From a virus: a stretch of DNA of 55,823 bases. Where the stretch lies: the IMG/VR virus record IMGVR_UViG_3300005264_000018, positions 1 through 55,823 of that record; one strand, given 5' to 3'. The translations under genes were made by a program, and so were the position numbers. How positions within the stretch are numbered: position 1 is the first letter of the stretch; each line of letters begins with the position of its first letter. This document shows, one piece after another, positions 29,751-49,512 of the stretch. The notes under the pieces were generated by a model that made no database searches, was not told where the DNA came from, and was given only the letters and a program-made list of their open reading frames with translations.

Positions 29751-30224
29751 CTACTCTTGTTCAGCTAATTCATCGATAATAGCATCTATAATATCAGATT
29801 TTCTAGTTAAGCCTTCAATATCTACATTATGTTCGTTAGCATAAACTTTAATTTGCTTAACATTCATACTCTCAAAATCAGGGAAGGCATCCTCATCCTC
29901 AGGTTCATCTGTTTCAAGGTCTGGATTAGCTCCTAAATCAGGGAAGGCATCCTCATCCTCAGGTTCATCTGTTTCAAGGTCTGGATTAGCTCCTAAATCT
30001 ACAGATGCTTTATCTTCAGTAGGTAAATTTGTAACTTCAGTAACATTTTCAGTTGCTTCTTCTGTAATTTCTTTAGAAATAGCTAACAATTTTTCCTCAC
30101 AATGCCAATTCAAATAAGTTTTAGAGAACTTACCACCTAAATCACTTCTAACCTCTCCACGAGTTAGGCTTAAAGATAAACCTCTTTCCGAGAGGTTACA
30201 GTTCTTCAATACATCGTATTTCAT
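29751..30224 (-). CDS. HeH/SAP-like domain protein with an exact tandem repeat
   Basis: A 157-residue protein. Residues about 117-157 (MNVKQIKVYANEHNVDIEG, then RKSDIIDAIIDEL) fit the HeH/SAP/Rho-N type of DNA-binding helix-extension-helix domain often found in small phage head proteins. The middle is very acidic and includes a 20-residue unit (beginning DLGANPDLET) twice in tandem, encoded by an exact 60-bp duplication. The N-terminal domain holds CNLSERGLSLSLTRGEV. It follows the capsid operon terminator and an endonuclease gene. A head-completion role is inferred. Confidence 0.65.
   Translation of the reverse strand: MKYDVLKNCNLSERGLSLSLTRGEVRSDLGGKFSKTYLNWHCEEKLLAISKEITEEATENVTEVTNLPTEDKASVDLGANPDLETDEPEDEDAFPDLGANPDLETDEPEDEDAFPDFESMNVKQIKVYANEHNVDIEGLTRKSDIIDAIIDELAEQE
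29875..29999. repeat. Exact tandem duplication, period 60 bp
   Basis: Two adjacent copies of a 60-bp unit (29881-29940 and 29941-30000) differ only at the last base, and period-60 identity runs from 29875 to 29999. The unit adds 20 acidic residues in frame to the HeH-domain protein. The lack of divergence between copies points to a recent slip or unequal recombination event, or ongoing copy-number variation. Confidence 0.95.
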
Positions 30225-30302: not shown

Positions 30303-31940
30303 CTACCTTGTCAAATTGTACTTTATTTTACCACTATCATAGTAACGGATAAAACCTAATTCATCCGACATCTGAAACTCAGTTTTATCCTTAAAGTCTA
30401 AACCTTTTTCACTCATCAATTGTTTAAGTCTAGCCTTTCTAAAATAAGACTTATGATACATATTATAAGCACTATCATAATAATTATAGCTAGGAGAGGT
30501 TGTATAAATTTCTTTAAAACCATGCTGTAAATAAACAGCTCCTTGCGACCCTTGTAAATCTGCAAAAGATATTATATTATCATAAGTCCTATTTTTGGTG
30601 AAATATCTTAATAGCTTACTAAATCCACCTTGAACATTAGTAAAGGTTTTTGTAGCGAAACGATTAAGATTGTATTCACCTTTTTTTGATATACTGAAAG
30701 TCATTACAGATAATAACTCTTCTTCAAAATATAATCCTAGTTTGACTGAGCTTATAGCATAACCTTGTAAATGATTATCATCCATAAACATTTTAGCAGT
30801 CTGAGAAGATAATTCTTTTATATTACATTTTCTAGCTCCTATTTTAAAAGGAGTTAGATTAAGCTTATTCAATATTAAGGACTGAACTATATATTTATTA
30901 TGAATCCATTGACTATCAGTTATATGAATAATAGATTTACCTAAAGCTAAACTGTCTAAAGTTTTATCTCTTTGATAAACAGTTCCTTTAAATTTATCAC
31001 TATGCCAATAAACCCCGTCAAACTCTATAAAGAGATTATGCTCAGGAATATGTATATCTATCTCTCTTTTGTCTTCAAAAGGATTTATATGCCTCTCAAT
31101 CACTATATATTGACTTATAAAAGAAGCTAATTCCTCTTCCATTTTTGAAGTTCCTATATTATGACACTTTTTACAGAAGCCATGACCTTGGGTTATCCTT
31201 TCCCCTCTAGTTGTATATTTATGACCTTTACCACACATAATATCAATATTCTCTTTTACACCTTTAAAGTCAGACAATAATTTATAACCCTTATCCACCT
31301 TATGTAAAAGTTTTAAAATAGAGTCATTATCATAAACTAAATTTCTACCAAAGATATATTTATAACCTCTATCATTTATAGTCTTTTTCATTTTAATAGA
31401 TTGCTTTGAAGTGTTGCACTTAGCACAACCAACTCCTGCTAATAATCCATCAAGTCGGATACTTTGGGTTTTATGTATTTTACAATAGAAATCTATTTTA
31501 TTATGGGTGCCTTTATAAACGGAATTACTAAAATCCAGTTTTCCCTTATAAATTTTATTTAACTTATCAATCATAGTTTTAGTTGTATAAGGATTATTAG
31601 ATGAACATTCTTTACAATATAACCCTCTTTTAATCATATCTAAAGAAACTTCCTGTTCTCCGTGTATATCACAATTATAAATAGACTTAATTCTCAATCC
31701 ATAATAGAACCAGTTATCCCATTGATTACCTGTTAAATTATATTCTAAACGATACTTAACAGTCTTGCTAGTATAAACAGACGGACACATATTATTAGTG
31801 CATTTGTAATTCTTTAATCTATCCAACCTTATTGAATAATCTTTTCTACAAAATTTACAAACAGCATCTATCTTTTCAGAGGGGTCATAATGTTCTACAT
31901 TATATTCAAAACTATTATTAACTAACCTAGCATCTTTCAA
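30303..31940 (-). CDS. Homing-endonuclease-like protein with zinc modules (capsid-linked copy)
   Basis: A 545-residue protein starting at TTG 31940, which has AGGAG six bases upstream. Residues 1-270 hold four zinc-type modules, each of the form IxCxxH/C....C..C (VCKFC, YNCDIHG, FYCKIHK, MCGKGHK). Residues about 285-350 hold the nuclease core: KREIDIHIPEHNLFIEFDGVYWHSD, a PD-(D/E)XK/Vsr-like pattern. The C-terminal 150 residues (IGARKCNIKE, FMDDNHLQG, RFATKTFTNVQGGFSKLL, YYDSAYN) are shared with the other copies. It lies between the capsid gene terminator and the HeH-domain gene. Such free-standing genes spread by cutting and copying into a homologous site. Confidence 0.75.
   Translation of the reverse strand: MKDARLVNNSFEYNVEHYDPSEKIDAVCKFCRKDYSIRLDRLKNYKCTNNMCPSVYTSKTVKYRLEYNLTGNQWDNWFYYGLRIKSIYNCDIHGEQEVSLDMIKRGLYCKECSSNNPYTTKTMIDKLNKIYKGKLDFSNSVYKGTHNKIDFYCKIHKTQSIRLDGLLAGVGCAKCNTSKQSIKMKKTINDRGYKYIFGRNLVYDNDSILKLLHKVDKGYKLLSDFKGVKENIDIMCGKGHKYTTRGERITQGHGFCKKCHNIGTSKMEEELASFISQYIVIERHINPFEDKREIDIHIPEHNLFIEFDGVYWHSDKFKGTVYQRDKTLDSLALGKSIIHITDSQWIHNKYIVQSLILNKLNLTPFKIGARKCNIKELSSQTAKMFMDDNHLQGYAISSVKLGLYFEEELLSVMTFSISKKGEYNLNRFATKTFTNVQGGFSKLLRYFTKNRTYDNIISFADLQGSQGAVYLQHGFKEIYTTSPSYNYYDSAYNMYHKSYFRKARLKQLMSEKGLDFKDKTEFQMSDELGFIRYYDSGKIKYNLTR
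30814..30874. repeat. 61-bp segment identical in two endonuclease genes
   Basis: Bases 30814-30874 are identical to 35345-35405. Both encode the shared motif around NLTPFKIGARKCNIKE in two endonuclease paralogues whose other parts differ clearly. A related but diverged version is at about 37784-37840. Identity confined to this block suggests recent gene conversion or strong selection. Confidence 0.9.
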
Positions 31941-32014: not shown

Positions 32015-32938
32015 TTACTGACCTACAAGGATTTTGATAGCTGAAAGACCTTTAGGGTTATGAATCAGTAATCCAATTTCCTCAAAGATACTATATCCAA
32101 CTTCAAGAGCCTTATTATCTTCTGCTTCAAGCACCGTTAAGTCCCACGAAACTACCAATCTACCAAAGTAAGAAGGTTCGCAGGTGATAAAGATATAATC
32201 TTTAGGTACCATACTTGATGTATTGATTTGAGTACCATTAATTCTAGCAATATAACCTGCTGTGATTAACTCTCTGCTTGTTTCAAAATCAATATAGTAA
32301 CCAGTTTGAACATTGTTCATTTCTCTTAGAACTTGTTTCCAAAAGGGGTTCATATAAATAGAAACAGCATCAAGCTCTCCCCATTTTTCAATCTCAGCTT
32401 GTGCTTGACTGAAGTGTTTAACTGTAAGCTCTGATTGCTTAACTGTAGTGATAGCATTGATATCAGTGCTTCTCTCTGCAACAATTTTCATAAGGTCAAA
32501 GATTTTACCATCTTCTACTTTTACGATTTCAGATTTTACTTTTTCTCTTACTCTATCATTAAGGTCAAATCTAGCTTGTTTAATTTCTGTAAGTGGTATC
32601 ATTGGATTTGCTGTTATTTTAAATAACGGAACAAGTACCTTTTTACCTTTAACTTTTGCTTGAACTTCTTCACCCTCTTCACCAATCACATAAGCTGGTA
32701 CTTCAATGTCTTTTGGAAATTCAGGAATTGCACCTTGACCAAGTGGATAGATACGGAATGCTCTACGACCTACTGCTCTATAATCTCTCATTTCTCTTAA
32801 TGGGTCTACCATTGATACTGAAAGTTCTTCTCTACCAGCAGCTGTTGCCATCAGTTGAGCTGTTGATTCATTTCTAGCATTAATATCTGCTAATGTTTCT
32901 ACTTGTCCTACTGTTGCAGGGATAAATGGGTTATTCAT
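32015..32938 (-). CDS. Major capsid protein (HK97-like)
   Basis: A 307-residue protein following decoration and scaffold-like genes. The N-terminal part is helical (VETLADINARNESTAQLMATAAGREELS), then come an E-loop-like strand region (FRIYPLGQGAIPEFPKDIEVPAYVIG), a spine-helix region (FDLNDRVREKVKSEIVKVEDGKIFDLMKIVAER) and P/A-domain strands (DAVSIYMNPFWKQVLREM, GYYIDFETSRELITAGYIARINGTQI, DYIFITCEPSYFGRLVVSWDLTVLEAED). It has the length and pattern of compact HK97-fold capsid proteins. A strong terminator follows it, as often seen for this highly expressed gene. Confidence 0.85.
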   Translation of the reverse strand: MNNPFIPATVGQVETLADINARNESTAQLMATAAGREELSVSMVDPLREMRDYRAVGRRAFRIYPLGQGAIPEFPKDIEVPAYVIGEEGEEVQAKVKGKKVLVPLFKITANPMIPLTEIKQARFDLNDRVREKVKSEIVKVEDGKIFDLMKIVAERSTDINAITTVKQSELTVKHFSQAQAEIEKWGELDAVSIYMNPFWKQVLREMNNVQTGYYIDFETSRELITAGYIARINGTQINTSSMVPKDYIFITCEPSYFGRLVVSWDLTVLEAEDNKALEVGYSIFEEIGLLIHNPKGLSAIKILVGQ

Positions 32939-33419: not shown

Positions 33420-34244
33420 TTAATTAAAATTCCAACTTACTAGTGGTTGTGAAGAAGCTTCACTTGACATAGCTGTTGCATTTGCGACTGTTTTTACTGA
33501 AGGAGGGTTAGTATCTCTACCTTGTTCAATAATCTCATTAGCACCTGATTTCTCAGTTACTTTTAAATCAGAATTAATTTCTCCATGATTAACACCTGTA
33601 CCCAGTTTCTTAGCAATTGCCATAAGTTCACCAGCTTCTACAGTAAAACCATCTGCTAGAAGTTCTTGTGCTTGTGCTTCTAAAGAAGTAGCTTTCATAA
33701 CCTTAGTTGGTTTAACTGCATGACCCTTTTTAACATTTAAAGAAGAAACTTTACCTGTTTTGTTAGATTTTACACCTGATTTCAGTTTAGCCGCATCAGG
33801 TATAGACTGTCTTCCAACATTAGGTCCTGCTGTTACTTCTGTATAATCATCTTCATCAAAAGATACAGACTCTTGGACTTCATCAGTTGCTTTTTCTTCA
33901 TCATCTATATCATCTATATCATCTTCATCTTCAGCAGTTATTCCTAACTCACCCTCAATCATTTGACCGACTAAAGTTGCCTGAGCTTTTGTAGCAAGTA
34001 CTACAGAATAAGTATCATCAAAATCCGTAGTACTTGCTACAGATGTAAAAGTATCTACATCACTCACTTGACCTAAGATATAGTTTTCTGCTGAAGCAGT
34101 TGTTTCTAAAACATTTGCAACTGAGCCTAAAGCTTGATGTAAATCATCAGTTGAATAAGCACCACTTGTAACATTACTTGCGATAGCATCTAACGACTGA
34201 GACATACCAGTTATTGTTTTTACAATTTGAACATTTTTGTTCAT
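33420..34244 (-). CDS. Scaffold-like prohead core protein
   Basis: A 274-residue protein between the polymerase C-fragment and the decoration gene, the usual place of the scaffold. It has an acidic central segment (GITAEDEDDIDDIDDEEKATDE), a lysine-rich section (KLKSGVKSNKTGKVSSLNVKKGHAVK) and a helical stretch (LEAQAQELLADGFTVEAGELMAIAKKLG). These low-complexity charged parts fit an internal scaffolding protein removed by the prohead protease. Near the N-terminus it has AIAS (residues 20-23), similar to the IIAS at the start of the effector proteins, which might be a protease site. Confidence 0.55.
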   Translation of the reverse strand: MNKNVQIVKTITGMSQSLDAIASNVTSGAYSTDDLHQALGSVANVLETTASAENYILGQVSDVDTFTSVASTTDFDDTYSVVLATKAQATLVGQMIEGELGITAEDEDDIDDIDDEEKATDEVQESVSFDEDDYTEVTAGPNVGRQSIPDAAKLKSGVKSNKTGKVSSLNVKKGHAVKPTKVMKATSLEAQAQELLADGFTVEAGELMAIAKKLGTGVNHGEINSDLKVTEKSGANEIIEQGRDTNPPSVKTVANATAMSSEASSQPLVSWNFN

Positions 34245-34266
34245 AGTAATTCCTTTAAATCTTATT

Positions 34267-34315
34267 TTAGGTAGTTTCTAATTTTATTAAAAACAAAAGT
34301 GAGTAACTAACCTAA
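34267..34315. terminator. Inverted repeat before the scaffold-like gene
   Basis: TTAGGTAGTT (34267-34276) and AACTAACCTAA (34305-34315) can pair over ten positions with one bulge around a 28-base AT-rich loop. It lies between the polymerase C-fragment and the scaffold-like gene. There is no clean T tract next to the stem, so it may be a weak terminator or a processing site. Confidence 0.4.
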
Positions 34316-34323
34316 GTATTATA

Positions 34324-34842
34324 TTAATCTAAAAACCTAGTTATCAATTCCTTACTAACTAAGTTTTTATAAAACATCACTTCTCCATTCACTTTAATAC
34401 CCAAGCGAACATCCCCTGCTAATACAGATGAGTTGATTTCTTTTAACAACTCATCTATATCAATATTATCAAGAATAATCTCTTCGACCTTCTCGGGTTC
34501 ATCTTCTTTAATTCCCTCCTTTATAGATTGGTATTTTTTCAAAGCATCTAACTCTTCTTGATTCCTAGTAACTTGATATACATCTAAGGCTGTTTTGGAA
34601 GTCCAACTTCCATATTTATCATATTCTATGTCAAATAAGAAATTAAGATAAGGGACACCTAGCTTATTAATTGTTTTCTTTAGAGTAGATATTTCAGATA
34701 ACTTTTTCAATAGAGCCTTTAATAAGTAATTATCTACTAAATAATCTATCTCATCGTGTACTGTATTAACAAATACTAACATATCTTGCTGTATGGACTT
34801 TTTATAATCATCTATTGATTTATACTTAGCTTTTTTAAACAT
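34324..34842 (-). CDS. Family-A DNA polymerase fragment carrying motif C
   Basis: A 172-residue protein whose N-terminal half matches the end of a family-A polymerase palm: LVFVNTVHDEIDYLV, with the catalytic H29-D30-E31 of motif C, then helices and a closing stretch FDIEYDKYGSWTSK like the C-terminus of T7 and Pol I-type enzymes. The last 90 residues are an extra acidic tail. It begins three bases after the stop of an endonuclease gene, with AAGGAGAAG upstream of the ATG. Upstream of that endonuclease is the matching piece with motif B. It would need the missing pieces in trans to form an active enzyme. Confidence 0.75.
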   Translation of the reverse strand: MFKKAKYKSIDDYKKSIQQDMLVFVNTVHDEIDYLVDNYLLKALLKKLSEISTLKKTINKLGVPYLNFLFDIEYDKYGSWTSKTALDVYQVTRNQEELDALKKYQSIKEGIKEDEPEKVEEIILDNIDIDELLKEINSSVLAGDVRLGIKVNGEVMFYKNLVSKELITRFLD

Positions 34843-34845
34843 AGA

Positions 34846-36531
34846 TTACTCTTCTCCTTTCACATAAGTATCTGTTCCACAATTAAATATTCTCTCATAC
34901 CCTAGTTTCTCCATCTGTTCTACCTCTTTAAAATCTTTTATATCTATATCTAAATTAAATTTCTTTTTAATCATTTTCTTTTGGAAACCTCTCCTATGAT
35001 GACGAATACCATTTTTAAAATAAAAATAAGAAGGTCTATTACTTCTGACCTTAATGAACTTATTTGTCTTATATACAGAACCCGTAGACCATCTTAAATC
35101 TACATAAGATATAATAGGTAAACTGGTTCCCAAGAATTTAAGTAATTTAGAGAAACCTCCTTGTACTAAAGTATAAATTTTAGTAGCAAATTTAGTTAGT
35201 TCTATTTGATTTTCTTTTTTAATGAAGCCCATAACACATAACAGCTCATCTTCAAAATATAAACCTAAAGCAGTTGTATAATTAGAATTACCTCCTAATA
35301 AATGATTTTCTTTTAAAAAAGAGTTAGCTTGTTTATTGGCAATCTCTTTTATATTACATTTTCTAGCTCCTATTTTAAAAGGAGTTAGATTAAGCTTATT
35401 CAATAACATAGAATGTATAATAGGTTTTTGAAAAATCATTTCATCTTCCCATATATGAAATAAGTTTACATTGTTTGCATTACATAAATCTGTCTTATCC
35501 TTATGATAACTCTTACCCAATCTTTTTTCACTATGCCAATACAAACCGTTGTATTCAATAGCTAGATTAAATTTAGGTAAATAAATATCCAATTCTTTAC
35601 CTTTTAACCAGCTAGGTTTATAATTTTCTATAACATCTGTATAAGAAGATAACCAGTCTGCCAATTCCTTCTCTACAATAGAATAACTTTTAGATTTACG
35701 ACATTTATCACAGCCCCTAGATGTGTATAAACTATCTGCTTGTTTTAAAGTGAAAGGTTCCTTATGTATAGTGCAATAGCAATCTATAGGGGAGTTAGCT
35801 CCTTTATATAAAGTATTAGAAAAATCAAATGTTTTCGAGAAAGGGTTTCTCTCTTTAACTCTCTGTATAAAATCTTCATTAGTTATAGCAAGAGCTTCAA
35901 ATATATTACACTTGAAACACCCACATAATCTTTTAGATGTAAAATTATTAGCTATTATAGAAAACTCATTATTGCATCTATTACAAATAACAGTTACGGG
36001 TTTGTCCCATCTTGTATATACAATTTTAGAATAATCATAATCGTCTCCGTGTAGAGCCTTAGCCTTGGCTATATATTCTTCTGTAGTTAAGGATTGATTA
36101 GAAATAGTCCCCATGTCTCCACATTTACTGCATCCATATTTTTGGTTCATTAAAACAGATAAAGACTTGGTAAACTTACCATGATATTTGCATTCAAACT
36201 CTATCAGGGAAGTCATATTCTCAAATATAACTTTATCCCAAAGTATATTAGGGTATTTTACCTTCAATTTGGGTAATAATTTATTATACTTAACCAAAGA
36301 AGAAGCCTTTATCTTTTTTAATCGTTCTTTCTGTAAGGATAATGCAGAGCATTTTTTACAATCATATAAATAATGAGACTTAGGAGTTATATTAATAATA
36401 GATTGACATCTATTACACTTAATCTTGATTTTAGTTCTACTATCTTTATAAATAACTTCTGAATAATTAAAATTATCTCCGTGTATAGATTTAGCTTTTA
36501 TTAAAAAGGACTTTAAATCAGTTACTCTCAT
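34846..36531 (-). CDS. Homing-endonuclease-like protein inside the split polymerase
   Basis: About 561 residues from ATG 36531, which overlaps the stop of the polymerase fragment as TAATG and has GGAG five bases upstream. Residues 1-270 contain four zinc-type modules (IKCNRCQ, FECKYHG, ICNRCNN, CYCTIHK, each closed by CxxC or a close variant). The nuclease core follows: GKELDIYLPKFNLAIEYNGLYWHSE, with YHKDKTDLCNANNVNLFHIWEDE. The C-terminal domain (IGARKCNIKE, ENHLLGGNSNY, FATKIYTLVQGGFSKLLKFL, RPSYFYF) is common to all copies. It separates the motif B and motif C pieces of the polymerase, so it is the likely cause of the split. Confidence 0.8.
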   Translation of the reverse strand: MRVTDLKSFLIKAKSIHGDNFNYSEVIYKDSRTKIKIKCNRCQSIINITPKSHYLYDCKKCSALSLQKERLKKIKASSLVKYNKLLPKLKVKYPNILWDKVIFENMTSLIEFECKYHGKFTKSLSVLMNQKYGCSKCGDMGTISNQSLTTEEYIAKAKALHGDDYDYSKIVYTRWDKPVTVICNRCNNEFSIIANNFTSKRLCGCFKCNIFEALAITNEDFIQRVKERNPFSKTFDFSNTLYKGANSPIDCYCTIHKEPFTLKQADSLYTSRGCDKCRKSKSYSIVEKELADWLSSYTDVIENYKPSWLKGKELDIYLPKFNLAIEYNGLYWHSEKRLGKSYHKDKTDLCNANNVNLFHIWEDEMIFQKPIIHSMLLNKLNLTPFKIGARKCNIKEIANKQANSFLKENHLLGGNSNYTTALGLYFEDELLCVMGFIKKENQIELTKFATKIYTLVQGGFSKLLKFLGTSLPIISYVDLRWSTGSVYKTNKFIKVRSNRPSYFYFKNGIRHHRRGFQKKMIKKKFNLDIDIKDFKEVEQMEKLGYERIFNCGTDTYVKGEE

Positions 36532-37289
36532 TACCACTCCACTTTCATTTGTAACTCTTCTATATCCCTCATATTAATATGAAGATTCCTATCAAATTCC
36601 TGTACAATTACACCTTTAGAGTTCTTTACTAATATCTTAACATTACCATCTTCCATTTGTTCTAAATAGTCTTCTACCCAATCATATAGATATTTTTCTT
36701 CAATAGAGACTATTCTTTGATAATAATTCTTACATATATTGTTATTTTGTAATTGACTTAAATCGTTCTTCTCTATATAATTACCTACTATATTTATAAT
36801 CAGTTTGATAGTTTCCGCACCGAAACTTTGAATCGGACTATTGTAAATCTTATTTCTTGCCTTAGCTTTCTCTCTCCAGTTATCGCTACCTAGAGCAGGT
36901 AAATATAATCTTCTACCTAAAAAGGTCTTTACAAATAAATCTCTATTAGCTTCTTTTTCTAGTTTAACTAAATGTTTCTTAAAATATTTAAGATGTTTGA
37001 AATAGTTGCCAAATAATTTTATATTCTCTGCTTCTGTTCCACCTAAGATAGATTGAAGCACTTTATAAGAACCTCCATAGTTAAGTCCTAGACCCATTCC
37101 TTTAGCTTTCTTTCTGTATTTCTTTTGAACCTCTTCTTGACCCTGCGGTCCCGATAGATACAAAGTTTTCAATTTATCATATCCAAAGAAAGCGGCAGCA
37201 TTAGAAGTATGCCAATCGCCGATTTCAGGAAATACTATATCGCTATTTATATTATGACTTTTAATTTTATCTAGTATGCTCAATTTCAA
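36531..37289 (-). CDS. Family-A DNA polymerase fragment carrying motif B
   Basis: A 252-residue piece of a Pol I-type DNA polymerase. GDWHTSNAAAFFG (residues 24-36) matches the DIHT segment after motif A. YRKKAKGMGLGLNYG (residues 58-72) is motif B, the O helix, with R59, K63, G68 and Y71 in place and Leu at the position of E. coli Phe762. TFLGRRLYLPAL (122-133) and RNKIYNSPIQSFGAE (145-159) match the GRRR and PIQG regions. Motif A itself is absent, as is any exonuclease domain. There is no ATG start; TTG at 37289 or 37283 after AAAGG is the best candidate and overlaps the upstream endonuclease stop. It is flanked by endonuclease genes on both sides. Confidence 0.75.
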   Translation of the reverse strand: MKLSILDKIKSHNINSDIVFPEIGDWHTSNAAAFFGYDKLKTLYLSGPQGQEEVQKKYRKKAKGMGLGLNYGGSYKVLQSILGGTEAENIKLFGNYFKHLKYFKKHLVKLEKEANRDLFVKTFLGRRLYLPALGSDNWREKAKARNKIYNSPIQSFGAETIKLIINIVGNYIEKNDLSQLQNNNICKNYYQRIVSIEEKYLYDWVEDYLEQMEDGNVKILVKNSKGVIVQEFDRNLHINMRDIEELQMKVEW

Positions 37290-38764
37290 CCTTTAACCTT
37301 TATGTAGCAAGATAATCCGCTTTCATAAATTCTTCTATATCCTTTATTATACATAAAGTCTCTTTCATTACTAACTTTAACTTTATATCTCTTTTCTAAT
37401 TTCTTCTTAGTGAAATTTTTTTTATTATAAGTTATACCACTCTTAGTGTAAAAATAATTAGGAGGTGATTTATGTGAGAATTTAAAACCATTACTTAAAT
37501 ATAAATTACCAGTTGACCATCTATCTTCAGAATAAGAGATTATATCTGTTTGTATATTAAATGCTTTTAATAACTTAGAAAAACCACCTTGAACTAAGGT
37601 GTAAGTCTTTGTTGCGAACTTAGTTAAATTATAGATACCTTTCATCTTCTTCATATACATAACACATAATAATTCATCTTCATAATATAAACCTAGTAAG
37701 GAGACACCTCTATTACCTCCTAACAAATGGTTCTCATTAAGAAAAGAGTTAGCCTCTTTTAATGTAGGCTTTTTAATATTACATTTTCTAGCACCAATTT
37801 TAAAAGGAGTTAGATTCAATTTGTTTAATAACATAGAGTATATAATATTGGGATGGTCTCTTAATTCATCTTCCCATATATGGAACAGATTTATATTATT
37901 ATCATTACATAAGTCTGTCTTCTCTTTATGATAATTCTTATGCTTAAAATTCTCACTGTGCCAATAAACCCCGTTATGTTCTATAGCTAACTTGAAATTA
38001 GGTAAATAGATATCTAACTCTAATCCATGCATCCATTTAGGTCTATAATTCTCTATAACATCTGTATATTGTTTTAAGAACTTTACTAAATACCTCTCAG
38101 GTCGAGAAATACCAGAATTACTACACTTTTTACAACCTTGTCCTCTTCTTAAATGGTCATAATCTTTGTAAAAGTATTCCTTATGTTTTTTACAGTAAAT
38201 CTTTAAAGGAGTATAAGCATCTATATAAATAGTTTCACTAAAATCAAGAAGAGGGAACCTAGACTCCAGCTCCTTTTTATTAAAAGAGTTATTTTCAGAT
38301 TGTGCTTTACTTAGTTTATCTTTGTAACAAAACTCACATCCATGTTTTTCTCTAAGGTCTATTAAGTTTTTATAGAAATAAGTTCTATGCTTTTTACAAT
38401 ATACTTTCATAGGTGACTTAACTTGCTCATAGGTCTCATAAAAGTATTTAAAATTTTCTGTATAATCCTTATTAGACTTGACCCACTTCTTAAAAGATAT
38501 TAAAGAACTAGCGATTTGATTAGAGTTTGATTTTATTATACCCTGCTCTAATCTTTCTAACCTACAGTAATTACAACTATGAGTATTTTCCTTAAACTCT
38601 TTCGGTAAGTTATAAAAATATTCATTATGTTTCTTACAATAAATTTCTATAGGAGATTTACCAAATTTATAATAGTCGAAGTTAAATTCATAACCCTCAG
38701 CCCTAGCGGGGTTATCTAGTAACCATTGCTTAAATTTAACTATAACAGGACTAGTTTTATTCAC
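37286..38764 (-). CDS. Homing-endonuclease-like protein between prohead protease and polymerase fragment
   Basis: A 492-residue protein starting at GTG 38764, overlapping the protease stop as TAGTG, with AAGGA upstream. Three zinc-type modules of the form IYCKKHxxYFY....C..C lie in residues 1-215. The nuclease core is GLELDIYLPNFKLAIEHNGVYWHSE plus YHKEKTDLCNDNNINLFHIWEDE. The C-terminal domain carries IGARKCNIKK, NENHLLGGNRG, FATKTYTLVQGGFSKLLKAF and SPPNYFY. It is closest to the copy at 36531..34846. Its stop overlaps the start of the polymerase motif B fragment. Confidence 0.8.
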   Translation of the reverse strand: MNKTSPVIVKFKQWLLDNPARAEGYEFNFDYYKFGKSPIEIYCKKHNEYFYNLPKEFKENTHSCNYCRLERLEQGIIKSNSNQIASSLISFKKWVKSNKDYTENFKYFYETYEQVKSPMKVYCKKHRTYFYKNLIDLREKHGCEFCYKDKLSKAQSENNSFNKKELESRFPLLDFSETIYIDAYTPLKIYCKKHKEYFYKDYDHLRRGQGCKKCSNSGISRPERYLVKFLKQYTDVIENYRPKWMHGLELDIYLPNFKLAIEHNGVYWHSENFKHKNYHKEKTDLCNDNNINLFHIWEDELRDHPNIIYSMLLNKLNLTPFKIGARKCNIKKPTLKEANSFLNENHLLGGNRGVSLLGLYYEDELLCVMYMKKMKGIYNLTKFATKTYTLVQGGFSKLLKAFNIQTDIISYSEDRWSTGNLYLSNGFKFSHKSPPNYFYTKSGITYNKKNFTKKKLEKRYKVKVSNERDFMYNKGYRRIYESGLSCYIKVKG

Positions 38765-39921
38765 TAATTATCCTTAAACAAATCTTCATATAAAATATCA
38801 TTACCCTTTTTATCAGATATAGAATATTTACCTTGCCAAGTTTTAAATGCGTTTTTACTTAGATATCCCGAAGGTAATTCTACCTTCAATTCTGTATCAG
38901 CAGGAATATCTAAGATATGTGAAGTACTTGCACCTTTAAAAGCAGGATTAACATCTAAATAGCTAAGTTCAATAAACTCCACATATCCTTGCCCTTGTTT
39001 ATTTCTATAATCTTCCACTAGGTGGGCAATTCTAAGCTTACGACCTTTATCATCAATAAAGTATTTACCCTTACTATATTTGAAATGGTCACAGAACTCA
39101 TCTATAGATGTAGCAATATTACCACAATAAGTACATCTAAAGCTAGAACTCTCTGCACCCATAGAAACAAATTTAACTACACCATTTTCTATAGCCTTAG
39201 ACCATTGAGGGTCTTTATTTCTATTAGTAGCTATCAAGGTATCTATATAAATTACTTCAACTTCAGGGTTGTTCTTTAAAGGAACCTTCCTCATAACTGC
39301 ATCTATTATAATACCATAACTCTCTTCAGGGTTTTGGTTATGATTCCTATAATTGTGAGAACCTATAAAAGTTTTATAATATTTTGCTAAAATTCTATCT
39401 GAAAAAGCATTACCATTGTTATTTACAAATTGAGAAGTTGTTGGACTAATTTTAAAGCCTTCTATAATATCTACACTCGCTACAGCAGTTGTTTGAGAAA
39501 ATAACCAATCGCTAGAATTGAACCCTATAGTAATTGTATCTGCATTATCATCTATAATTACAGCATTTTCCTTAGAGTTGTGTCTTAGATGAGCTTCTTG
39601 ACCATCTGTATTTATAAAACAGGTAAAGTTGTCACATTTAACTTTCTTTAAATTATCTTCTGTTTTATGTTCTTCAGGTCTTTGAATTCCACCTACATCA
39701 GCATTATCTTTTGTTAAAGCAGTTACATCTAACTCTTCTCCTGCACTAGGTAAAGTTGGAGTTTTAATACTTGTAGGAATTGTAGGAGCTTTGATACTTG
39801 TTCTTGAAGTCTGTTTTTTGTTACTACGGGCAATACTAGGTGCTTGTATCTTTGATACAGGTTTTTTATGGGATTTACTATTATCTACAGTGTGTTTTTC
39901 TATATTTGCTATTATGTTCAT
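38764..39921 (-). CDS. Prohead (capsid maturation) protease with zinc finger
   Basis: 385 residues from ATG 39921, which overlaps the upstream stop as TAATG and has AAGGA seven bases before it. It starts MNIIAN, like the MRIIA genes upstream. Residues 25-60 are a repeat-like linker with IKAPTI and IKTPTL. The protease-type core has FIGSHNYRNHNQNPEESYG (H189 or H194) and NGVVKFVSMGAES (S253), fitting the His and Ser pattern of U35/S78-type prohead proteases. A zinc site follows: C263, C266, C277 and H279. Location between portal and scaffold/capsid genes supports the call. It would process scaffold and other head proteins. Confidence 0.65.
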   Translation of the reverse strand: MNIIANIEKHTVDNSKSHKKPVSKIQAPSIARSNKKQTSRTSIKAPTIPTSIKTPTLPSAGEELDVTALTKDNADVGGIQRPEEHKTEDNLKKVKCDNFTCFINTDGQEAHLRHNSKENAVIIDDNADTITIGFNSSDWLFSQTTAVASVDIIEGFKISPTTSQFVNNNGNAFSDRILAKYYKTFIGSHNYRNHNQNPEESYGIIIDAVMRKVPLKNNPEVEVIYIDTLIATNRNKDPQWSKAIENGVVKFVSMGAESSSFRCTYCGNIATSIDEFCDHFKYSKGKYFIDDKGRKLRIAHLVEDYRNKQGQGYVEFIELSYLDVNPAFKGASTSHILDIPADTELKVELPSGYLSKNAFKTWQGKYSISDKKGNDILYEDLFKDN

Positions 39922-40283
39922 TACAATTCCTTCTCTACCAAATTCATAGCTCCACCCCAACCCTTAAAACGATAACCTCTATCATCTATATACAATTGAG
40001 CAGGTAGTTTCTTATTTGTTATTTTTATCTCAGAAATTCTTTTATCTTCAAAATTAGCTTCCAGCCATTCTTTAATACCTTTAATAGGTCTAGCTGTGAA
40101 TATAAATAACTCATAACCTTTATTTAATAACTCAGTTAGAGCTTCTGATGTACCTGCAATAGGTTTATCATAAATTGAACCGTCTTGCCAACCTTTACTG
40201 TAAGAATGTATAACACCATCAAAGTCTATACCAATTACACTTTTATCTTCTTTCCAACCAACTGTTAAAGCAATTATTCTCAT
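39921..40283 (-). CDS. HAD-superfamily phosphatase with MRIIA leader
   Basis: A 120-residue protein. VIGIDFDGVIH (D20 and D22) is HAD motif I, LFIFTAR (T63) is motif II, and LYIDDRGYRF (D100, D101) is the acidic motif IV. No large cap domain is present. Small HAD phosphatases act on nucleotides, sugars or phosphorylated proteins. The first five residues MRIIA are the same as in the five genes upstream, and a further ten residues precede the catalytic fold. AAAGGG lies at a good distance before the ATG. A role in the host after delivery from the capsid is a hypothesis. Confidence 0.75.
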   Translation of the reverse strand: MRIIALTVGWKEDKSVIGIDFDGVIHSYSKGWQDGSIYDKPIAGTSEALTELLNKGYELFIFTARPIKGIKEWLEANFEDKRISEIKITNKKLPAQLYIDDRGYRFKGWGGAMNLVEKEL

Positions 40284-40352
40284 TTAAAGCCCTTTATACT
40301 GATTTTATATCTTACATAAGTAAAACTTCCTAGAAGACTTAATTATGAAGAT

Positions 40353-40372
40353 AAGGACAAGTTAATGTCCTT
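40353..40372. terminator. 7-bp hairpin after the unknown MRIIA gene
   Basis: AAGGACA and TGTCCTT (40353-40359 and 40366-40372) form a perfect stem with a six-base loop five bases past the stop at 40377. The minus-strand sequence after it is only moderately T-rich (ATCTTCAT), so termination is probably partial. The 70 bases beyond it, before the HAD gene, could hold a promoter (GATATAAAAT). Confidence 0.5.
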
Positions 40373-40376
40373 ATAA

Positions 40377-40997
40377 TTATCTAATTTTTTTATTAGATTT
40401 AATCTCCAATCTTTTAGCGATAGAGCCATCCTCTTTAATAGATAATAGAAAACGATGTCCACCTACTATAGTTCGCCCATTAACTTGTGAAAAACCTTTT
40501 AAATTATAAGCCTTGTTAGAAGGTTGTGCAATATAAAAAGATGAAAATCTCTTACCTTTTATTAGAGTTTTAGCTTTAGATAAAGCTTCTTTTTCTGATT
40601 TATACCGTTTACTTACGACTAATTCATCTCTATCATCTCTAAGCTCTATAAAAAATTCAGAAATAGGTTTACTTTTAGAAGAAGTTGTAGGAGAATCTTT
40701 TGGAACTTCATTAGTTATTATAATGTGACTATCATCATAATTTCCTACAACTTTAATACCTACACCTGCTCTCTTTAAATCACCTTTAAAAGGTGCTTTA
40801 ACATCAAATCTTAAATCCGTTTGGTTGATGTCTAATCCTCCATTAAGCTCTGTAACTACGATATCTTTATATTTAGCATTACTTTTAATAACACCCTCAA
40901 TCTTAGCTTTTAGTTTAGGTAAATTCTTTAGCTTTACCATATCTTTACTAGAATTAAAATCGTCATCTGCTGTACTTTCCATTGCTATAATTCTCAT
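40377..40997 (-). CDS. Unknown MRIIA-leader protein
   Basis: 206 residues from ATG 40997; a second ATG three bases upstream is possible, but AAAGGAG is better spaced for 40997, which restores the start MRIIAMES. Residues about 40-90 form an alpha-beta domain (KYKDIVVTELNGGLDINQTDLRF, GVGIKVVGNYDDSHIII). The C-terminal half is lysine-rich with beta strands (EFFIELRDDRDELVVSKRYKSE, SSFYIAQPSNKAY). No known domain is recognised. It belongs to the row of genes sharing the MRIIA leader and may be another packaged protein. Confidence 0.65.
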   Translation of the reverse strand: MRIIAMESTADDDFNSSKDMVKLKNLPKLKAKIEGVIKSNAKYKDIVVTELNGGLDINQTDLRFDVKAPFKGDLKRAGVGIKVVGNYDDSHIIITNEVPKDSPTTSSKSKPISEFFIELRDDRDELVVSKRYKSEKEALSKAKTLIKGKRFSSFYIAQPSNKAYNLKGFSQVNGRTIVGGHRFLLSIKEDGSIAKRLEIKSNKKIR

Positions 40998-41041
40998 CAT
41001 AGACTCCTTTTATTTTTTAATTAACTAATATATATAAAACC

Positions 41042-41695
41042 TTATTTAGGGTTTCTAATCATAGTTTCAATATATAAGTAATTTTTATTTCTACCTAGAT
41101 TTCTTTTAAAACCAAACTTACCATAGAATTTACGAAGTCTGCTTACAGATGTTGCACCAAAATCTTTAGAAGGTGTAAGCACTATAACATAACCTTGTCT
41201 ATCTGCGAACTGAGTTAGCTCTTCCATAAACTTAGAACCAATACCTTCTTTTCTCGCTTCTTTAGGAACAAAGATTGAAGCTAACTTAATATTCTTTTCG
41301 CCTTGAGTTACATTAAAATAAGCTGTGTATTCTATGTTTAACTTTTTGGATAATACTAGTCTATCAAAATCACTCCTATCTTTATCAATATTATCTGAAG
41401 CTGTTATATCCAACTTATGATGTGGTCTTACATTATCTAACTCTTTAATCATCTCTTTTAACATAGGAGTAGATTTCCATCTAATACGGTTTTTTTCTAA
41501 CTCATTGTAAAAGATTTCAGTTAATTGCTTACCATATTGCCCCATCATTTTAGGAAATACATTAGGGTATCCCATTTTCATTAAAGCAGATATTTCATTC
41601 TTAAATTCGTGAGGAAAACTAGCAGGAGTATTCTGCATAGCATTTATCATTCTCCTTAACATTAAATCTTTAGGAACACTGGCTATTATTCTCAT
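41042..41695 (-). CDS. GNAT N-acetyltransferase with MRIIA leader
   Basis: A 217-residue protein. The C-terminal half is a GNAT domain: strand KNIKLASIFVP, then the acetyl-CoA loop R148-K-E-G-I-G153 and helix SKFMEELTQFAD, then YVIVLTP and the closing motif LRKFYGKFGFKR (residues 187-198). The N-terminal 90 residues are helical and unlike standard GNATs. It begins MRIIAS, and ITAS at residues 97-100, just before the GNAT part, is a similar motif. The start overlaps the upstream stop as ATGA. It could acetylate a host protein or small molecule. Packaging in the capsid is a hypothesis based on the leader. Confidence 0.8.
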   Translation of the reverse strand: MRIIASVPKDLMLRRMINAMQNTPASFPHEFKNEISALMKMGYPNVFPKMMGQYGKQLTEIFYNELEKNRIRWKSTPMLKEMIKELDNVRPHHKLDITASDNIDKDRSDFDRLVLSKKLNIEYTAYFNVTQGEKNIKLASIFVPKEARKEGIGSKFMEELTQFADRQGYVIVLTPSKDFGATSVSRLRKFYGKFGFKRNLGRNKNYLYIETMIRNPK

Positions 41696-42246
41696 ATCGT
41701 TTCCTTAGTTAACTTATATTTAGGATTAATGATAGCATACCACATACCAATATCTCCACCTCTATCTACATAAGTACCATCTATCTTTATATGTTTATTC
41801 CAAAGCTTAACAAAATCTGTAACATTGAATTTACTGGCTAAATCAGTTTGTAAATTTCTTACCTCTTCATTTAATAAATAATCAGCTAACATTTCTAAAT
41901 GATAATCTTCTACTTCATCAGGTTCCCCTAATTCTACACCATAATCTGTTATAGCATAATATAGAGGTTCATCATCTAACTTATGAAGCTCTCTTAGAAC
42001 TTTAACTATCTTATCTTTCTTAATATGTTTAGAAGCGTCATCTCTACTATGGACAAAATCTTTAGGGTTAATCTTTGTGGATACTACATTTTTACCATAA
42101 TGGTCTGCTGTATCTCTATTACCGAAATATATACCTACACCTAATTCATTATTACCATTATTCATTAATTTAGGTTCTAACTTACTTGTTCCATAATTAT
42201 CTCCATGGTATATTGTCAAATTGGTATTACTAGCAACTATTCTCAT
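41692..42246 (-). CDS. ADP-ribosyltransferase-like protein with MRIVA leader
   Basis: A 184-residue protein. TIYHGDNYG (residues 11-19) fits the first ART motif (YHGT-like), and LGVGIYFGNRDTADHYG (residues 35-51) fits the second motif, seen as G-x-G-x-Y-F-T...A..Y in many mono-ADP-ribosyltransferases. The rest is acidic and helical and ends WYAIINPKYKL. The third-motif catalytic Glu cannot be assigned by eye. It begins MRIVAS, like its neighbours. T4 carries a head-packaged ADP-ribosyltransferase (Alt) that modifies host RNA polymerase, so this gene is a strong functional parallel. Confidence 0.6.
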   Translation of the reverse strand: MRIVASNTNLTIYHGDNYGTSKLEPKLMNNGNNELGVGIYFGNRDTADHYGKNVVSTKINPKDFVHSRDDASKHIKKDKIVKVLRELHKLDDEPLYYAITDYGVELGEPDEVEDYHLEMLADYLLNEEVRNLQTDLASKFNVTDFVKLWNKHIKIDGTYVDRGGDIGMWYAIINPKYKLTKETI

Positions 42247-42247
42247 T

Positions 42248-46237: not shown

Positions 46238-48079
46238 TTATCTAGTTATAGAACCTCCATATAGGGAGCCTCCATTTTGTTTGTTAATTCTTTCAATTAA
46301 TGCTTTCATATTAGATAAATCTTCGAGAGATTTTTCTTTAACATTTACTTGTTTATTACTACCTGTTACACCAGTCATATAAGGTTTTTTATCACCCATT
46401 TCATAAGTTAAGTAAATAGACCTACTTACTGCATCGAATAAATCATCATGACCACCTGACAAGGCTTCAACTTTAACATAGCTGTTTCTACCAGTTGTCT
46501 CTTGAAGATTCAATAACTCCGTAATTAATGGCTCATAGTCTGGTACCATAATTTTACCTTCCATTAACAATTGTCTAAATTGTTTAGCTGTTTCACTATT
46601 AACTGCTTGAGTTGAAGGTTTCATTTCTAGTCTTGGTATCTTAGCTTTAGCAAATAATTGTGTAAATACTTGCCCTGCCCACTGGTCATATATACCTTTA
46701 ATAATATTATATTTACCATATAAATCTTTTATTGTTTTAATGATAAATTCATGGTCTAATACCTCTCCTGCTTCAGGGGTGTAGACTGCCATATAATCTA
46801 CTACATAACATTCTTTATAATGCAATAATAAGCCTAATTCTTCTTCTTCATATTCACCAATAGGTCTAATAGACTCTTTATGTGATACACATAAAGCAAA
46901 TCCATCGCCTGACATTGCTAAATCCAGTCCTAGATAATATTTTTTACGAGGATTACCATTATTTATACTATTAGTCCATAGCTTGTTCACCATAGCTCTA
47001 ACTTTGTTTACATTTGAAATCCATCCATTAACATTATCAACAAATTCGCCTAAATATTCTTGTCTATAAGACAGTTCAGACTTATTAAAAGCATTTCTTA
47101 ACCTTTTAGGAGCTATCTTATTATTAACCCAGTGTGATGGCATATTAAGAACTAAATAAGTATCTTTATTAGCCTTTCCTGCTTGAAACATATTGTATAG
47201 TTCGCCTTTTTTACCATTAGGTGAACTCATTACAAATGATTTTCCATAAGCATTACCATCTTCATCTGAGAAACCCGCTACAGACGGAGTTAAAGCTTCA
47301 TATAATCTTATATCTAAAGGCTTCTTCTTAGCTACTACAGCAGAGTCATTAAAGTGACCATACTCATCCATAACTACTACAATATTCGATGCACCCCTTA
47401 CAGAAGGACTTGCGGCATAAGCTTCAATTAAAATATTACCCGGCGAGGTCGTAACACCTAAAGCTTCCTTTTCTTTGAAGATTGGAGTTCGTAACCAATA
47501 TTTACCACCTTTTGTACCATAGATATAAGGTTGAAAGAACTTACAAGGGTGCATAAGCTGTACCAAGTTTCTTAACTGTCTATCAGCACCTTCAGCAGAG
47601 TTAGAACATAAAGCTATACCAATAGGCTCTGAATGAGCTACTTCAAAGAAGGAATGAGGGTCTTCCATCAATAATAGTAAATAAACTGTATAAGCAGATA
47701 TGATAGAGGTCATAGTTGTTTTAGAACCTCTACGACCTATGATAAAAACTATCTCATCGATAGTATCTTCCATTTCTTCCCAGTCTTTAGGAGATAGATT
47801 TATACGACCTTCAGTATATAAAAACTCAAAAAATTCTACTTCACTAAATTGATATAATATCTTTTCATTGAAATTGTCTCTAATAATTATTTCATTTTCT
47901 TTTTTATCATTAGATAAAGGAATTTTATAAAAGAGTTTAAATATAAAAATTTGTGCAGGAAATAACTTTAAATCTAGTCCACTTCCTGAAGTAGCAAACT
48001 CTAAGATTGTTAGAGGCTTGACCCTAGCTTCACTTTCTATTTGTCTAGTTAAGGTTCTAATATAATCTGATAAAGCCAT
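46238..48079 (-). CDS. Terminase large subunit
   Basis: A 613-residue DNA packaging motor. GRRGSKTT (residues 115-122) is the Walker A type motif of terminases, IVVVMDEYGHF (233-243) is Walker B with the catalytic Glu, and MSSPNGKKGELYNM is motif III. The nuclease domain has KYYLGLDLAMSGDGFAL (first Asp), IKGIYDQWAGQVF and GGHDDLFDAVSR (last Asp pair). The ATG overlaps the upstream endonuclease stop as TAATG, and GGAGG precedes it within the end of that gene. Length and domain order are normal, so the enzyme appears intact. Confidence 0.93.
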   Translation of the reverse strand: MALSDYIRTLTRQIESEARVKPLTILEFATSGSGLDLKLFPAQIFIFKLFYKIPLSNDKKENEIIIRDNFNEKILYQFSEVEFFEFLYTEGRINLSPKDWEEMEDTIDEIVFIIGRRGSKTTMTSIISAYTVYLLLLMEDPHSFFEVAHSEPIGIALCSNSAEGADRQLRNLVQLMHPCKFFQPYIYGTKGGKYWLRTPIFKEKEALGVTTSPGNILIEAYAASPSVRGASNIVVVMDEYGHFNDSAVVAKKKPLDIRLYEALTPSVAGFSDEDGNAYGKSFVMSSPNGKKGELYNMFQAGKANKDTYLVLNMPSHWVNNKIAPKRLRNAFNKSELSYRQEYLGEFVDNVNGWISNVNKVRAMVNKLWTNSINNGNPRKKYYLGLDLAMSGDGFALCVSHKESIRPIGEYEEEELGLLLHYKECYVVDYMAVYTPEAGEVLDHEFIIKTIKDLYGKYNIIKGIYDQWAGQVFTQLFAKAKIPRLEMKPSTQAVNSETAKQFRQLLMEGKIMVPDYEPLITELLNLQETTGRNSYVKVEALSGGHDDLFDAVSRSIYLTYEMGDKKPYMTGVTGSNKQVNVKEKSLEDLSNMKALIERINKQNGGSLYGGSITR

Positions 48080-49512
48080 TATAGAACCTCCAATTTAACT
48101 TTAGTTAATCCTGAATTATATACCTTTAAATAGGAATTCAGTTGTTTATTTTTTTCTTCTTCTCTGAGAATAGATTTATGAAATCTATTTATTTTATTAG
48201 GACTAATATATACATAATCAGGTCGTAAGGTTTTAACAGTCTTGAAATTATTAGTATAATATATACTACCTATAGACCAAGACTTATCTATAAAAGAGAA
48301 TATAGTCTTGCAGGAATGTTCTCTTATAAAATACTTTAATAGCTTACTAAACCCACCTTGAATCGAAGTATATTCTTTTGTAGCGAATTTAACTAATTCC
48401 CAATTCTCTCTATGTCTGAAGGTCATTATAGATAGAAGCTCCTTATCATAGAATAAACCATAACTAATTATGCTACCTTTATTTCCACCTTGTAGATGAT
48501 TAGAGTTTAAGAAATTGAATGACTCCTGCATATCTACTTTCCTTATAATACATTTTCTAGCACCTATTACAAAAGGAGTGAGACCTAATTTATTTAATAG
48601 CATAGATTTTATAAGACTCTTCTTTTTGAACCAAAGGTCGCTCCATATATGAAACAGATTTACCTTATTTGCATTACATAAATCTGTTTTACCTTTATGA
48701 TAATTCCTACCCTTAAAATGAGAACTATGCCCATATACTCCGTTGTATTCGATAGCCAGATTAAACTTAGGGAGGTAAATATCTAGCTCCTTACCTTCCA
48801 TCCATTTAGGTCTATAGCTTAATTGTACATCTGTATAATAAGATAACCAGTCTGATAACTCTTTCTGCTCTTTAGAAGAATTAAAGGAATTAGAACATTT
48901 AGAACATCCTGCAGTTCTTTGCATTAAACTACCTGCCTCTTTATCTTGTACAAATTTACACTTTTTACACTTAACAGTTATGTAAGACTTGGCACCTTTA
49001 TAAACTGAATCAGTTGTATCCCATAAATCTAAATCTACTCTACTTTCAAAATAGCTTAAATCTTTTAGTCTTGAATTGCAGTATTTACACCCCTGTTGCT
49101 TACCTAGATAACTAGGAAATTGTTCATAGGTGCATTTATGTTTTATACAGTAAAGGATAGCTTTTTGTGAATGACCTCTATATTCAAGTAGCTTAACCCC
49201 TTCAGGTATTAAAAGGTCTTTAACTGTTTTAGTTTTAAATTGTTTCATCTTTAGACTAGCACAATCTCTACAGCCTTTAGTAAAGAGATGGTTCATATTA
49301 CTTTTAAATACAATATGATTACATTTATTACATTTAGCTTCTATCCCTTTATCTTTGAAAGCAATTTTAGAATAGTCTTTATTATTTTCTTCACATTTAT
49401 CTATATAATATTGTAAAGGTAGTTTTACACCCCCTTTACAATAAGGACAGCCTCTACCTACTAAATGAGATTGTAATTGTTGAAGAAAATAGGAATTACA
49501 AGAAGTACACAA
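48079..49512 (-). CDS. Homing-endonuclease-like protein between terminase genes
   Basis: Up to 477 residues. The frame opens after a stop at about 49524, and the first usable codon is TTG at 49512, without a clear SD and inside the end of the upstream gene. The first zinc module starts at the first codon and lacks its usual lead-in strand, so the N-terminus may be eroded. More zinc modules follow (CNKCN, YCIKH, CKKCK with CxxC partners). The nuclease core is GKELDIYLPKFNLAIEYNGVYGHSS, where W of the usual YWH is G. The C-terminal domain has IGARKCIIRK and FATKEYTSIQGGFSKLLKYF. It lies between the candidate small and the large terminase genes. Confidence 0.7.
   Translation of the reverse strand: MCTSCNSYFLQQLQSHLVGRGCPYCKGGVKLPLQYYIDKCEENNKDYSKIAFKDKGIEAKCNKCNHIVFKSNMNHLFTKGCRDCASLKMKQFKTKTVKDLLIPEGVKLLEYRGHSQKAILYCIKHKCTYEQFPSYLGKQQGCKYCNSRLKDLSYFESRVDLDLWDTTDSVYKGAKSYITVKCKKCKFVQDKEAGSLMQRTAGCSKCSNSFNSSKEQKELSDWLSYYTDVQLSYRPKWMEGKELDIYLPKFNLAIEYNGVYGHSSHFKGRNYHKGKTDLCNANKVNLFHIWSDLWFKKKSLIKSMLLNKLGLTPFVIGARKCIIRKVDMQESFNFLNSNHLQGGNKGSIISYGLFYDKELLSIMTFRHRENWELVKFATKEYTSIQGGFSKLLKYFIREHSCKTIFSFIDKSWSIGSIYYTNNFKTVKTLRPDYVYISPNKINRFHKSILREEEKNKQLNSYLKVYNSGLTKVKLEVL

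What the first reader, a model, noticed from the sequence alone, without database searches (positions are those of the whole stretch)
34324..38764. Family-A DNA polymerase fractured into pieces by endonuclease genes inside the capsid gene cluster
A 252-residue piece has motif B (R59, K63, Y71) and the PIQ region, and a 172-residue piece has motif C (HDE). They are separated by one endonuclease gene and preceded by another, all in the middle of head genes. Motif A and the exonuclease are not in the window. The overlaps (TTGA-type, TAATG) leave no room for a group I intron, and no intein ends are seen. Split DNA polymerases with endonuclease genes between parts are known in T4-like phages for family B; here it is family A, in at least three parts, and far from where replication genes are expected. 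Either the parts assemble in trans or this is a mobile cassette that carried polymerase pieces along.
Basis: partly seen in the sequence, partly recalled or inferred. Interest (0 to 1): 0.85.

Follow-up and report, generated by a model that had tools for sequence, protein, structure and literature searches.

The report
Phage DNA polymerase in four pieces
In a pair of related bacterial viruses, the enzyme that copies DNA appears to be coded as four separate protein pieces, two of them about 60 kilobases away among the capsid genes; both viruses keep the two capsid-cluster pieces intact under strong selection, so the pieces probably join up after translation into a working polymerase.

Summary
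Window 36531-37289 is the motif-B/PIQ part of a family A DNA polymerase (Pfam E 2e-19) and 34324-34842 is the motif-C (HDE) part. A homing-endonuclease-family gene lies between them and another precedes them, all between the prohead protease and scaffold genes. A related phage (IMG/VR 3300026484_000095, 110 kb) has both pieces at the same place (72% and 64% identical), still as separate ORFs but without the endonuclease between them. dN/dS is about 0.1 for both pieces. Catalytic residues are conserved. That phage also encodes the rest: a 591-aa exonuclease/thumb part (Klenow match, E 3.5e-7) that ends just before motif A, and a 307-aa zinc-type protein that carries motif A (TDVKSQEPRAFTLLSREPNW). 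These lie 63-67 kb from the head-cluster pieces. No intact family A, family B or PolIII-alpha polymerase was found in the 127 kb of that phage. A third, more distant phage has the same head cluster with no insert. No intron or intein is seen at any break. Best reading: endonuclease invasions broke the gene, the C-terminal half moved into the head operon, and four polypeptides assemble in trans. Assembly and activity are inferred, not shown.

The parts
36531..37289 (-). Polymerase piece B (252 aa): region after motif A (GDWHT, like GDIHT), motif B/O-helix RKKAKGMGLGLNYG (R59, K63, L67, Y71), NSPIQ helix, then an 80-aa extension
   Evidence: PF00476 E 2.3e-19; PDB Pol I E 8.5e-11; 72% identical to L002:9992-10744; dN/dS 0.107; core 83-91% identical, extensions 48-60%
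34324..34842 (-). Polymerase piece C (172 aa): motif C NTVHDEIDY and the end of the palm
   Evidence: motif-C profile E 2.2e-4, top of 2801 ORFs; hhalign ranking; 64% identical to L002:10746-11303; dN/dS 0.105
34846..36537 (-). Homing-endonuclease-family gene between B and C (probable start ATG 36531, overlapping the stop of B as TAATG); absent at this place in the relative
   Evidence: phrog_559 E 2.5e-104, phrog_3339 E 2.8e-80; weak match to I-Bth0305I 3r3p, E 0.31; junctions
37286..38764 (-). Homing-endonuclease-family gene just before B; also present in the relative (64% identical)
   Evidence: phrog_559 E 4.2e-91; synteny
38764..39960 (-). Prohead protease, upstream flank of the insert (likely start ATG 39921, MNIIAN...)
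   Evidence: phrog_18299 head maturation protease E 2.3e-18; in L025 the protease gene is followed directly by the scaffold gene
33420..34244 (-). Scaffold-like protein, downstream flank of the insert
   Evidence: syntenic with L002:11386-12651 and, by position only, with L025:8495-9310
32015..32938 (-). Major capsid protein, head-cluster context
   Evidence: phrog_2522 E 4.3e-39; 95% identical in G002
30303..31940 (-). Further homing-endonuclease-like gene beside the capsid gene
   Evidence: 37-41% identical to the G001 endonucleases
48079..49512 (-). Further homing-endonuclease-like gene beside the large terminase gene
   Evidence: 84.5% identical to G001:96929-98479; 40% to the endonuclease before B in G001

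Best explanation
The phage lineage replicates its DNA with a family A polymerase made of four separately translated polypeptides. N: 3'-5' exonuclease, thumb and the TSRFS...NxQxVP motif. A: a zinc-type protein that carries motif A. B: fingers with motif B and PIQ. C: motif C. Homing endonucleases broke the ancestral gene at points next to active-site motifs, and the B-C half moved with an endonuclease into the head operon between protease and scaffold. In the window phage a further endonuclease then landed exactly between the stop of B and the start of C. The pieces fold together without intron or intein splicing, helped by extensions at the broken ends. Shown here: the pieces, their order, their conservation under selection, and the empty site in a distant relative. 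Inferred: how the gene broke, assembly, activity, and that the window phage also has N and A, which lie outside its contig.
For: B and C are conserved at the same genomic place in two phages at 72% and 64% identity, with pN/pS 0.28 and dN/dS about 0.1, like the clamp loader (0.12) and portal (0.12) and lower than the protease (0.20). Conservation peaks in the polymerase core. In the relative no endonuclease separates B and C, yet they stay separate ORFs in different frames. N matches Klenow over residues 98-362, E 3.5e-7, and DNA_pol_A_exo1, E 1.2e-11; its TSRFS...NAQGVP pattern occurs in no other ORF and in none of 200 shuffled ORF sets. Motif A: A-ORF E 0.0016, 15.3 bits against 7.3 best in 20 shuffled ORF sets, and first of 267 ORFs by hhalign. 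Its C-x4-C-x2-C motif occurs in no other listed ORF of the two phages, and among 19 reference polymerases only in Tunturi_5, directly upstream of motif A. The four parts are complementary and collinear: N ends before motif A and B begins just after it. No other PF00476, PF00136, PF03175 or PF07733 match in G001 or G002. Precedent: phage 25 gp43A/43B and Aeh1 NrdA pieces assemble and work (PMC2988022).
Against: N and A are known from one relative only; the window contig does not reach them. The A assignment rests on about 30 residues of a 307-aa protein with no database relatives. The thumb part of N is too diverged for significance apart from the Klenow match and the motif pattern. Neither genome is complete, so an intact polymerase could lie in the missing part. 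AlphaFold2 models of B and A were useless (pLDDT 36). dS is near saturation (pS 0.71). B and C sit in the head cluster, where late expression would be expected, which is awkward for a replicative enzyme.
Confidence: 0.72

Rival explanations
1. B and C were moved into the head operon by an endonuclease and then recruited for a non-catalytic role there (for example binding DNA or a scaffold protein), while DNA synthesis depends on another polymerase.
For: Position in the head operon; large lineage-specific extensions on B and C.
Against: R59, K63, Y71, PIQ and HDE are kept and the polymerase core is the most conserved part. Complementary N and A parts exist in the same genome. No other replicative polymerase found in 127 kb.
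Confidence: 0.1
2. An intact DNA polymerase lies in the unsequenced rest of the genome, and the four pieces are parts of an older, still conserved accessory polymerase.
For: G001 plus G002 are not closed; the window is a fragment.
Against: G001 holds clamp loader, DnaB-like helicase, RecA, RNR and ligase genes but no second polymerase. The region not seen in G001 is, in the window phage, structural genes without a polymerase.
Confidence: 0.08
3. The pieces are joined as RNA or protein: trans-splicing introns or split inteins restore one polypeptide.
For: The same relative carries a recA gene fractured by what looks like a split intein with an endonuclease between the halves.
Against: No Rfam intron at the window junctions or in the relative's stretches that hold the pieces. 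No Hint or intein match and no Cys/HN ends on the pieces, whereas the recA halves show a CVTADTMVEV start and an HNS end. Shine-Dalgarno-like sequences and start codons precede B and C.
Confidence: 0.05
4. A recently mobile endonuclease cassette carries dead polymerase fragments.
For: Two endonuclease genes flank B; three or more further ones lie near terminase, capsid and tail genes.
Against: Open frames and dN/dS about 0.1 over saturated synonymous divergence in two phages; the pieces remain without the middle endonuclease in one of them.
Confidence: 0.05

Closest known systems
Split gene 43 (43A/43B) of T4-like Aeromonas phages 25 and 44RR
   Same: Replicative polymerase in separate polypeptides associated with a homing endonuclease or an untranslated insert; the phage 25 pieces co-purify and are active (PMC2988022).
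   Different: Family B, two pieces, presented as one split gene; here family A, four pieces, 63-67 kb apart in two gene modules.
Split nrdA of phage Aeh1 (mobE) and T4 topoisomerase large subunit split by mobA
   Same: Endonuclease insertion splits an essential enzyme into polypeptides that must reassemble; shown functional for Aeh1 NrdA (PMC2988022).
   Different: Two pieces on either side of the inserted endonuclease; not a polymerase.
Two-ORF PolA of OM43 phages MEP401/MEP402
   Same: Family A polymerase with exonuclease plus N-terminal polymerase part in one ORF and the C-terminal part in another (PMC10580990).
   Different: Only a small ORF between; its authors suspect an intron; pieces are neighbours.
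Fractured genes with split inteins and Vsr-type (EDxHD) homing endonucleases (Dassa et al. 2009, known here only as cited in PMC6892783 and PMC10448857 and from memory)
   Same: Genes broken around a free-standing endonuclease that appears to be of the same general type.
   Different: Those are rejoined by split inteins; none is seen at these polymerase breaks. The recA gene of the relative fits that class.
Three-exon DNA polymerase of Pectobacterium phage CB7
   Same: Polymerase coding split in three by HNH endonuclease genes (PMC7344957).
   Different: Interrupted by introns, at least one shown to splice by RT-PCR; here no intron and no adjacency.

Membership tests
Family A DNA polymerase (PF00476) | motif B / O-helix and PIQ region | tested here: met
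   E 2.3e-19 in piece B
Family A DNA polymerase (PF00476) | motif C (HDE) | tested here: met
   piece C top hit of motif-C profile, E 2.2e-4; no Pfam match on its own
Family A DNA polymerase (PF00476) | motif A (DxxxxE) | tested here: met
   not in the window; in the relative in a separate 307-aa ORF, E 0.0016, first of 267 ORFs; moderate strength
Family A DNA polymerase (PF00476) | 3'-5' exonuclease domain and motif T of the long PolA | tested here: met
   in the relative: PF01612 E 1.2e-11, Klenow E 3.5e-7, TSR...NxQxVP pattern
Family A DNA polymerase (PF00476) | polymerase activity of the assembled pieces | not testable with these tools
   needs co-expression and assay
EDxHD (Vsr-like, I-Bth0305I) homing endonucleases | sequence relation to the catalytic domain of I-Bth0305I | tested here: inconclusive
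   only PDB match is 3r3p at E 0.31; phrog_559/3339 homing endonuclease matches are strong
Fractured genes with split inteins | intein halves at the broken ends | tested here: not met
   no Hint/intein family on N, A, B or C; no Cys/HN splice ends by reading
Intron-interrupted polymerase genes | group I or II intron at the breaks | tested here: not met
   no Rfam intron in window 34000-39200 or in L002, L006, L007
T4-like split gene 43 | family B polymerase | tested here: not met
   pieces are family A; no PF00136 or PF03175 match

The most novel reading that the evidence does not exclude
A replicative family A polymerase whose palm is built from four separately encoded polypeptides, with the two catalytic aspartates on proteins encoded about 67 kb apart, and with the fingers and motif C encoded inside the head operon, so that polymerase assembly could be tied to expression of the head genes.
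Probability: 0.6. Interest if true: 0.87.

Novelty: new variant of a known kind. Interest (0 to 1): 0.8.

Why it matters
Endonuclease-split enzymes known in phages are two adjacent pieces. Here an essential active site would be divided among four proteins from two distant gene modules, stable long enough for synonymous sites to saturate in both head-cluster pieces. It makes testable how far a polymerase palm can be divided and still assemble, how endonucleases relocate host gene parts, and whether DNA synthesis can be tied to head-gene expression. It also shows that searches for intact polA in metagenomic phages will miss such enzymes.

Tried and rejected
A motif-A part within the window: none. 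Chance or decay of the pieces: rejected by two-phage conservation. Intron: none in Rfam. Split intein at the polymerase breaks: no match and no splice ends. B-C fusion by frameshift: in the relative C is in the +1 frame one base after the stop of B, but in the window 1.7 kb separates them. Further relatives: viral-contig scans with B, C, N, A, capsid and terminase gave only G001, G002 (contiguous with G001 by a 36-37-base overlap that differs by one A in a run) and the distant L025; genome scans gave none. These scans need exact short matches (the one with C missed its 64% relative), so few hits do not prove rarity. AlphaFold2 on B (2 sequences) and A (1 sequence) gave pLDDT 36 and was not used. 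Profiles of the thumb region did not single out N. Literature searches for other split PolA in phages found only MEP401-type and intron cases.

Full report
What is in the window. The window is a 55.8 kb fragment of a tailed phage. On the minus strand, between the prohead protease (38764-39960) and a scaffold-like gene (33420-34244), lie four ORFs in the direction of transcription: an endonuclease (37286-38764), a 252-aa ORF (36531-37289), a second endonuclease (34846-36537) and a 172-aa ORF (34324-34842). The 252-aa ORF, piece B, is family A polymerase: PF00476 E 2.3e-19, profile positions 199-325, PDB Pol I E 8.5e-11. Its O-helix RKKAKGMGLGLNYG keeps the residues that correspond to E. coli R754, K758 and Y766, with Leu at position 762, a type known in phages (PMC6302109). 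Piece C has no Pfam family, but a motif-C profile from 18 polymerases picks it first among 2801 ORFs, E 2.2e-4, and its relative in G001 is second. Both endonucleases are phrog_559/phrog_3339 homing endonucleases. The only solved relative is I-Bth0305I, and only weakly, E 0.31.

A relative with the same arrangement. A scan with piece B found IMGVR_UViG_3300026484_000095 (109,819 bases, here G001; locus L002). A capsid scan found a second contig from the same sample (G002) that overlaps its end by 36-37 bases apart from one A in a run. Gene order from clamp loader to scaffold is the same as in the window, with most proteins 47-85% identical. Pieces B and C sit at the same place, 72% and 64% identical. 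In G001 the endonuclease between B and C is missing: the stop of B and the start of C are one base apart and C is in another frame. In the window the second endonuclease begins exactly there, at TAATG. So the B/C split does not need the endonuclease between them. Whether it arose before that gene arrived, or the gene was lost in G001, is open.

Selection. Nei-Gojobori estimates give dN/dS 0.107 for B and 0.105 for C, against 0.12 for clamp loader and portal, 0.20 for the protease and 0.43 for the scaffold; synonymous sites are near saturation (pS 0.71), so the values are rough. Within B, identity is 83-91% over the polymerase core and 48-62% over the stretch before it and the extensions. The pieces are not decaying.

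The missing parts. G001 has a single PF00476 match, piece B, and no PF00136, PF03175 or PF07733 match. A 591-aa ORF at G001:42451-44226 (N) has the exonuclease domain (PF01612, E 1.2e-11) and matches the Klenow fragment over residues 98-362, E 3.5e-7. Near its end it has TSRFS...NAQGVP, the pattern of motif T and LQNIP, found in no other ORF and in none of 200 shuffled ORF sets. It stops before motif A. A motif-A profile then points to G001:38788-39711, a 307-aa ORF (A) with KVVATDVKSQEPRAFTLLSREPNWVSVF: E 0.0067 with 10 references, 0.0016 with 19, 15.3 bits against a maximum of 7.3 in 20 shuffled sets, first of 267 ORFs by hhalign. The phage phi18-2 polymerase has ADFKAQEIRCVAYLSGEP at the same place.

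An independent hint for A. A carries C-x4-C-x2-C twice. No other listed ORF of G001 or the window has this spacing; among 19 reference polymerases only Tunturi_5 (308 kb phage) has it, in an insertion directly upstream of its motif A. By eye, the tail of N (INAQGVPAQPYYTIKAKRMKVLPEQ) also resembles the start of that insertion (MNIQAIKSVGGNWWVKGDVLVPDY). This suggests the N/A break lies inside a zinc-type insertion of such polymerases. The resemblance of N's tail was not tested statistically.

Collinearity. Against intact polymerases the parts line up as N, A, B, C, with B starting just after motif A and C starting before motif C; B has about 80 residues after the PIQ helix that intact enzymes lack. 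In G001, A and N lie in the replication region (primase before N), 67 and 63 kb from B.

How it arose. A more distant phage (L025, terminase 45% identical) has protease followed directly by scaffold, with neither polymerase pieces nor endonucleases between. The insert is therefore probably derived. Endonucleases of one family sit beside terminase, protease, capsid and tail genes, so movement of a polymerase half by such an element is plausible. This is inference.

How it works. No Rfam intron lies at the window junctions or in the relative's stretches and no intein is recognisable on the pieces. By contrast, the recA gene of G001 shows a CVTADTMVEV start, an endonuclease ORF and an HNS end, the picture of a gene fractured by a split intein. 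For the polymerase, non-covalent assembly in trans remains, as shown for phage 25 gp43A/43B and Aeh1 NrdA (PMC2988022).

Limits. N and A come from one relative; genomes are not closed; the A assignment rests on about 30 residues plus the cysteine spacing; structure prediction failed for lack of relatives; activity is untested.

Noticed in passing
window 38764-44214 and 51127-51465 (minus strand); G001:102358-105882: Consecutive, mostly unrelated proteins between portal and prohead protease share an N-terminal M-x-I-I-A/G start (usually MRIIA): 7 window ORFs and 9 G001 ORFs, and no internal occurrence in over 57,000 residues. It looks like a capsid-targeting tag on internal head cargo, as in T4. 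Cargo would include a GNAT acetyltransferase, a HAD-like hydrolase and an HExxH protein.
   Followed up: partly
G001:55719-58340 (L007:17719-20000 and L008): recA is fractured: a short N part ending in CVTADTMVEV, an ORF of 282 aa between (by position an endonuclease), then a C part with intein-like sequence ending HNS before the P-loop.
   Followed up: partly
G001:44244-45282: A phage-encoded HD-GYP-like protein (PF13487, E 4e-30) and a GGDEF-domain protein (PF00990, E 5e-14) directly follow polymerase part N.
   Followed up: no
G001:47674-48413: A DNA methyltransferase-like gene in two adjacent ORFs (DPPY motif in the first, the rest in the second).
   Followed up: no
window 22893-23459: A short ORF that resembles only the C-terminal half of the endonuclease family (38-40% identical to the G001 endonucleases), between tail genes, perhaps a remnant.
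   Followed up: no
window 29751-30224: Head-region protein with an internal tandem repeat (PDLGANPDLETDEPEDEDAF twice).
   Followed up: no
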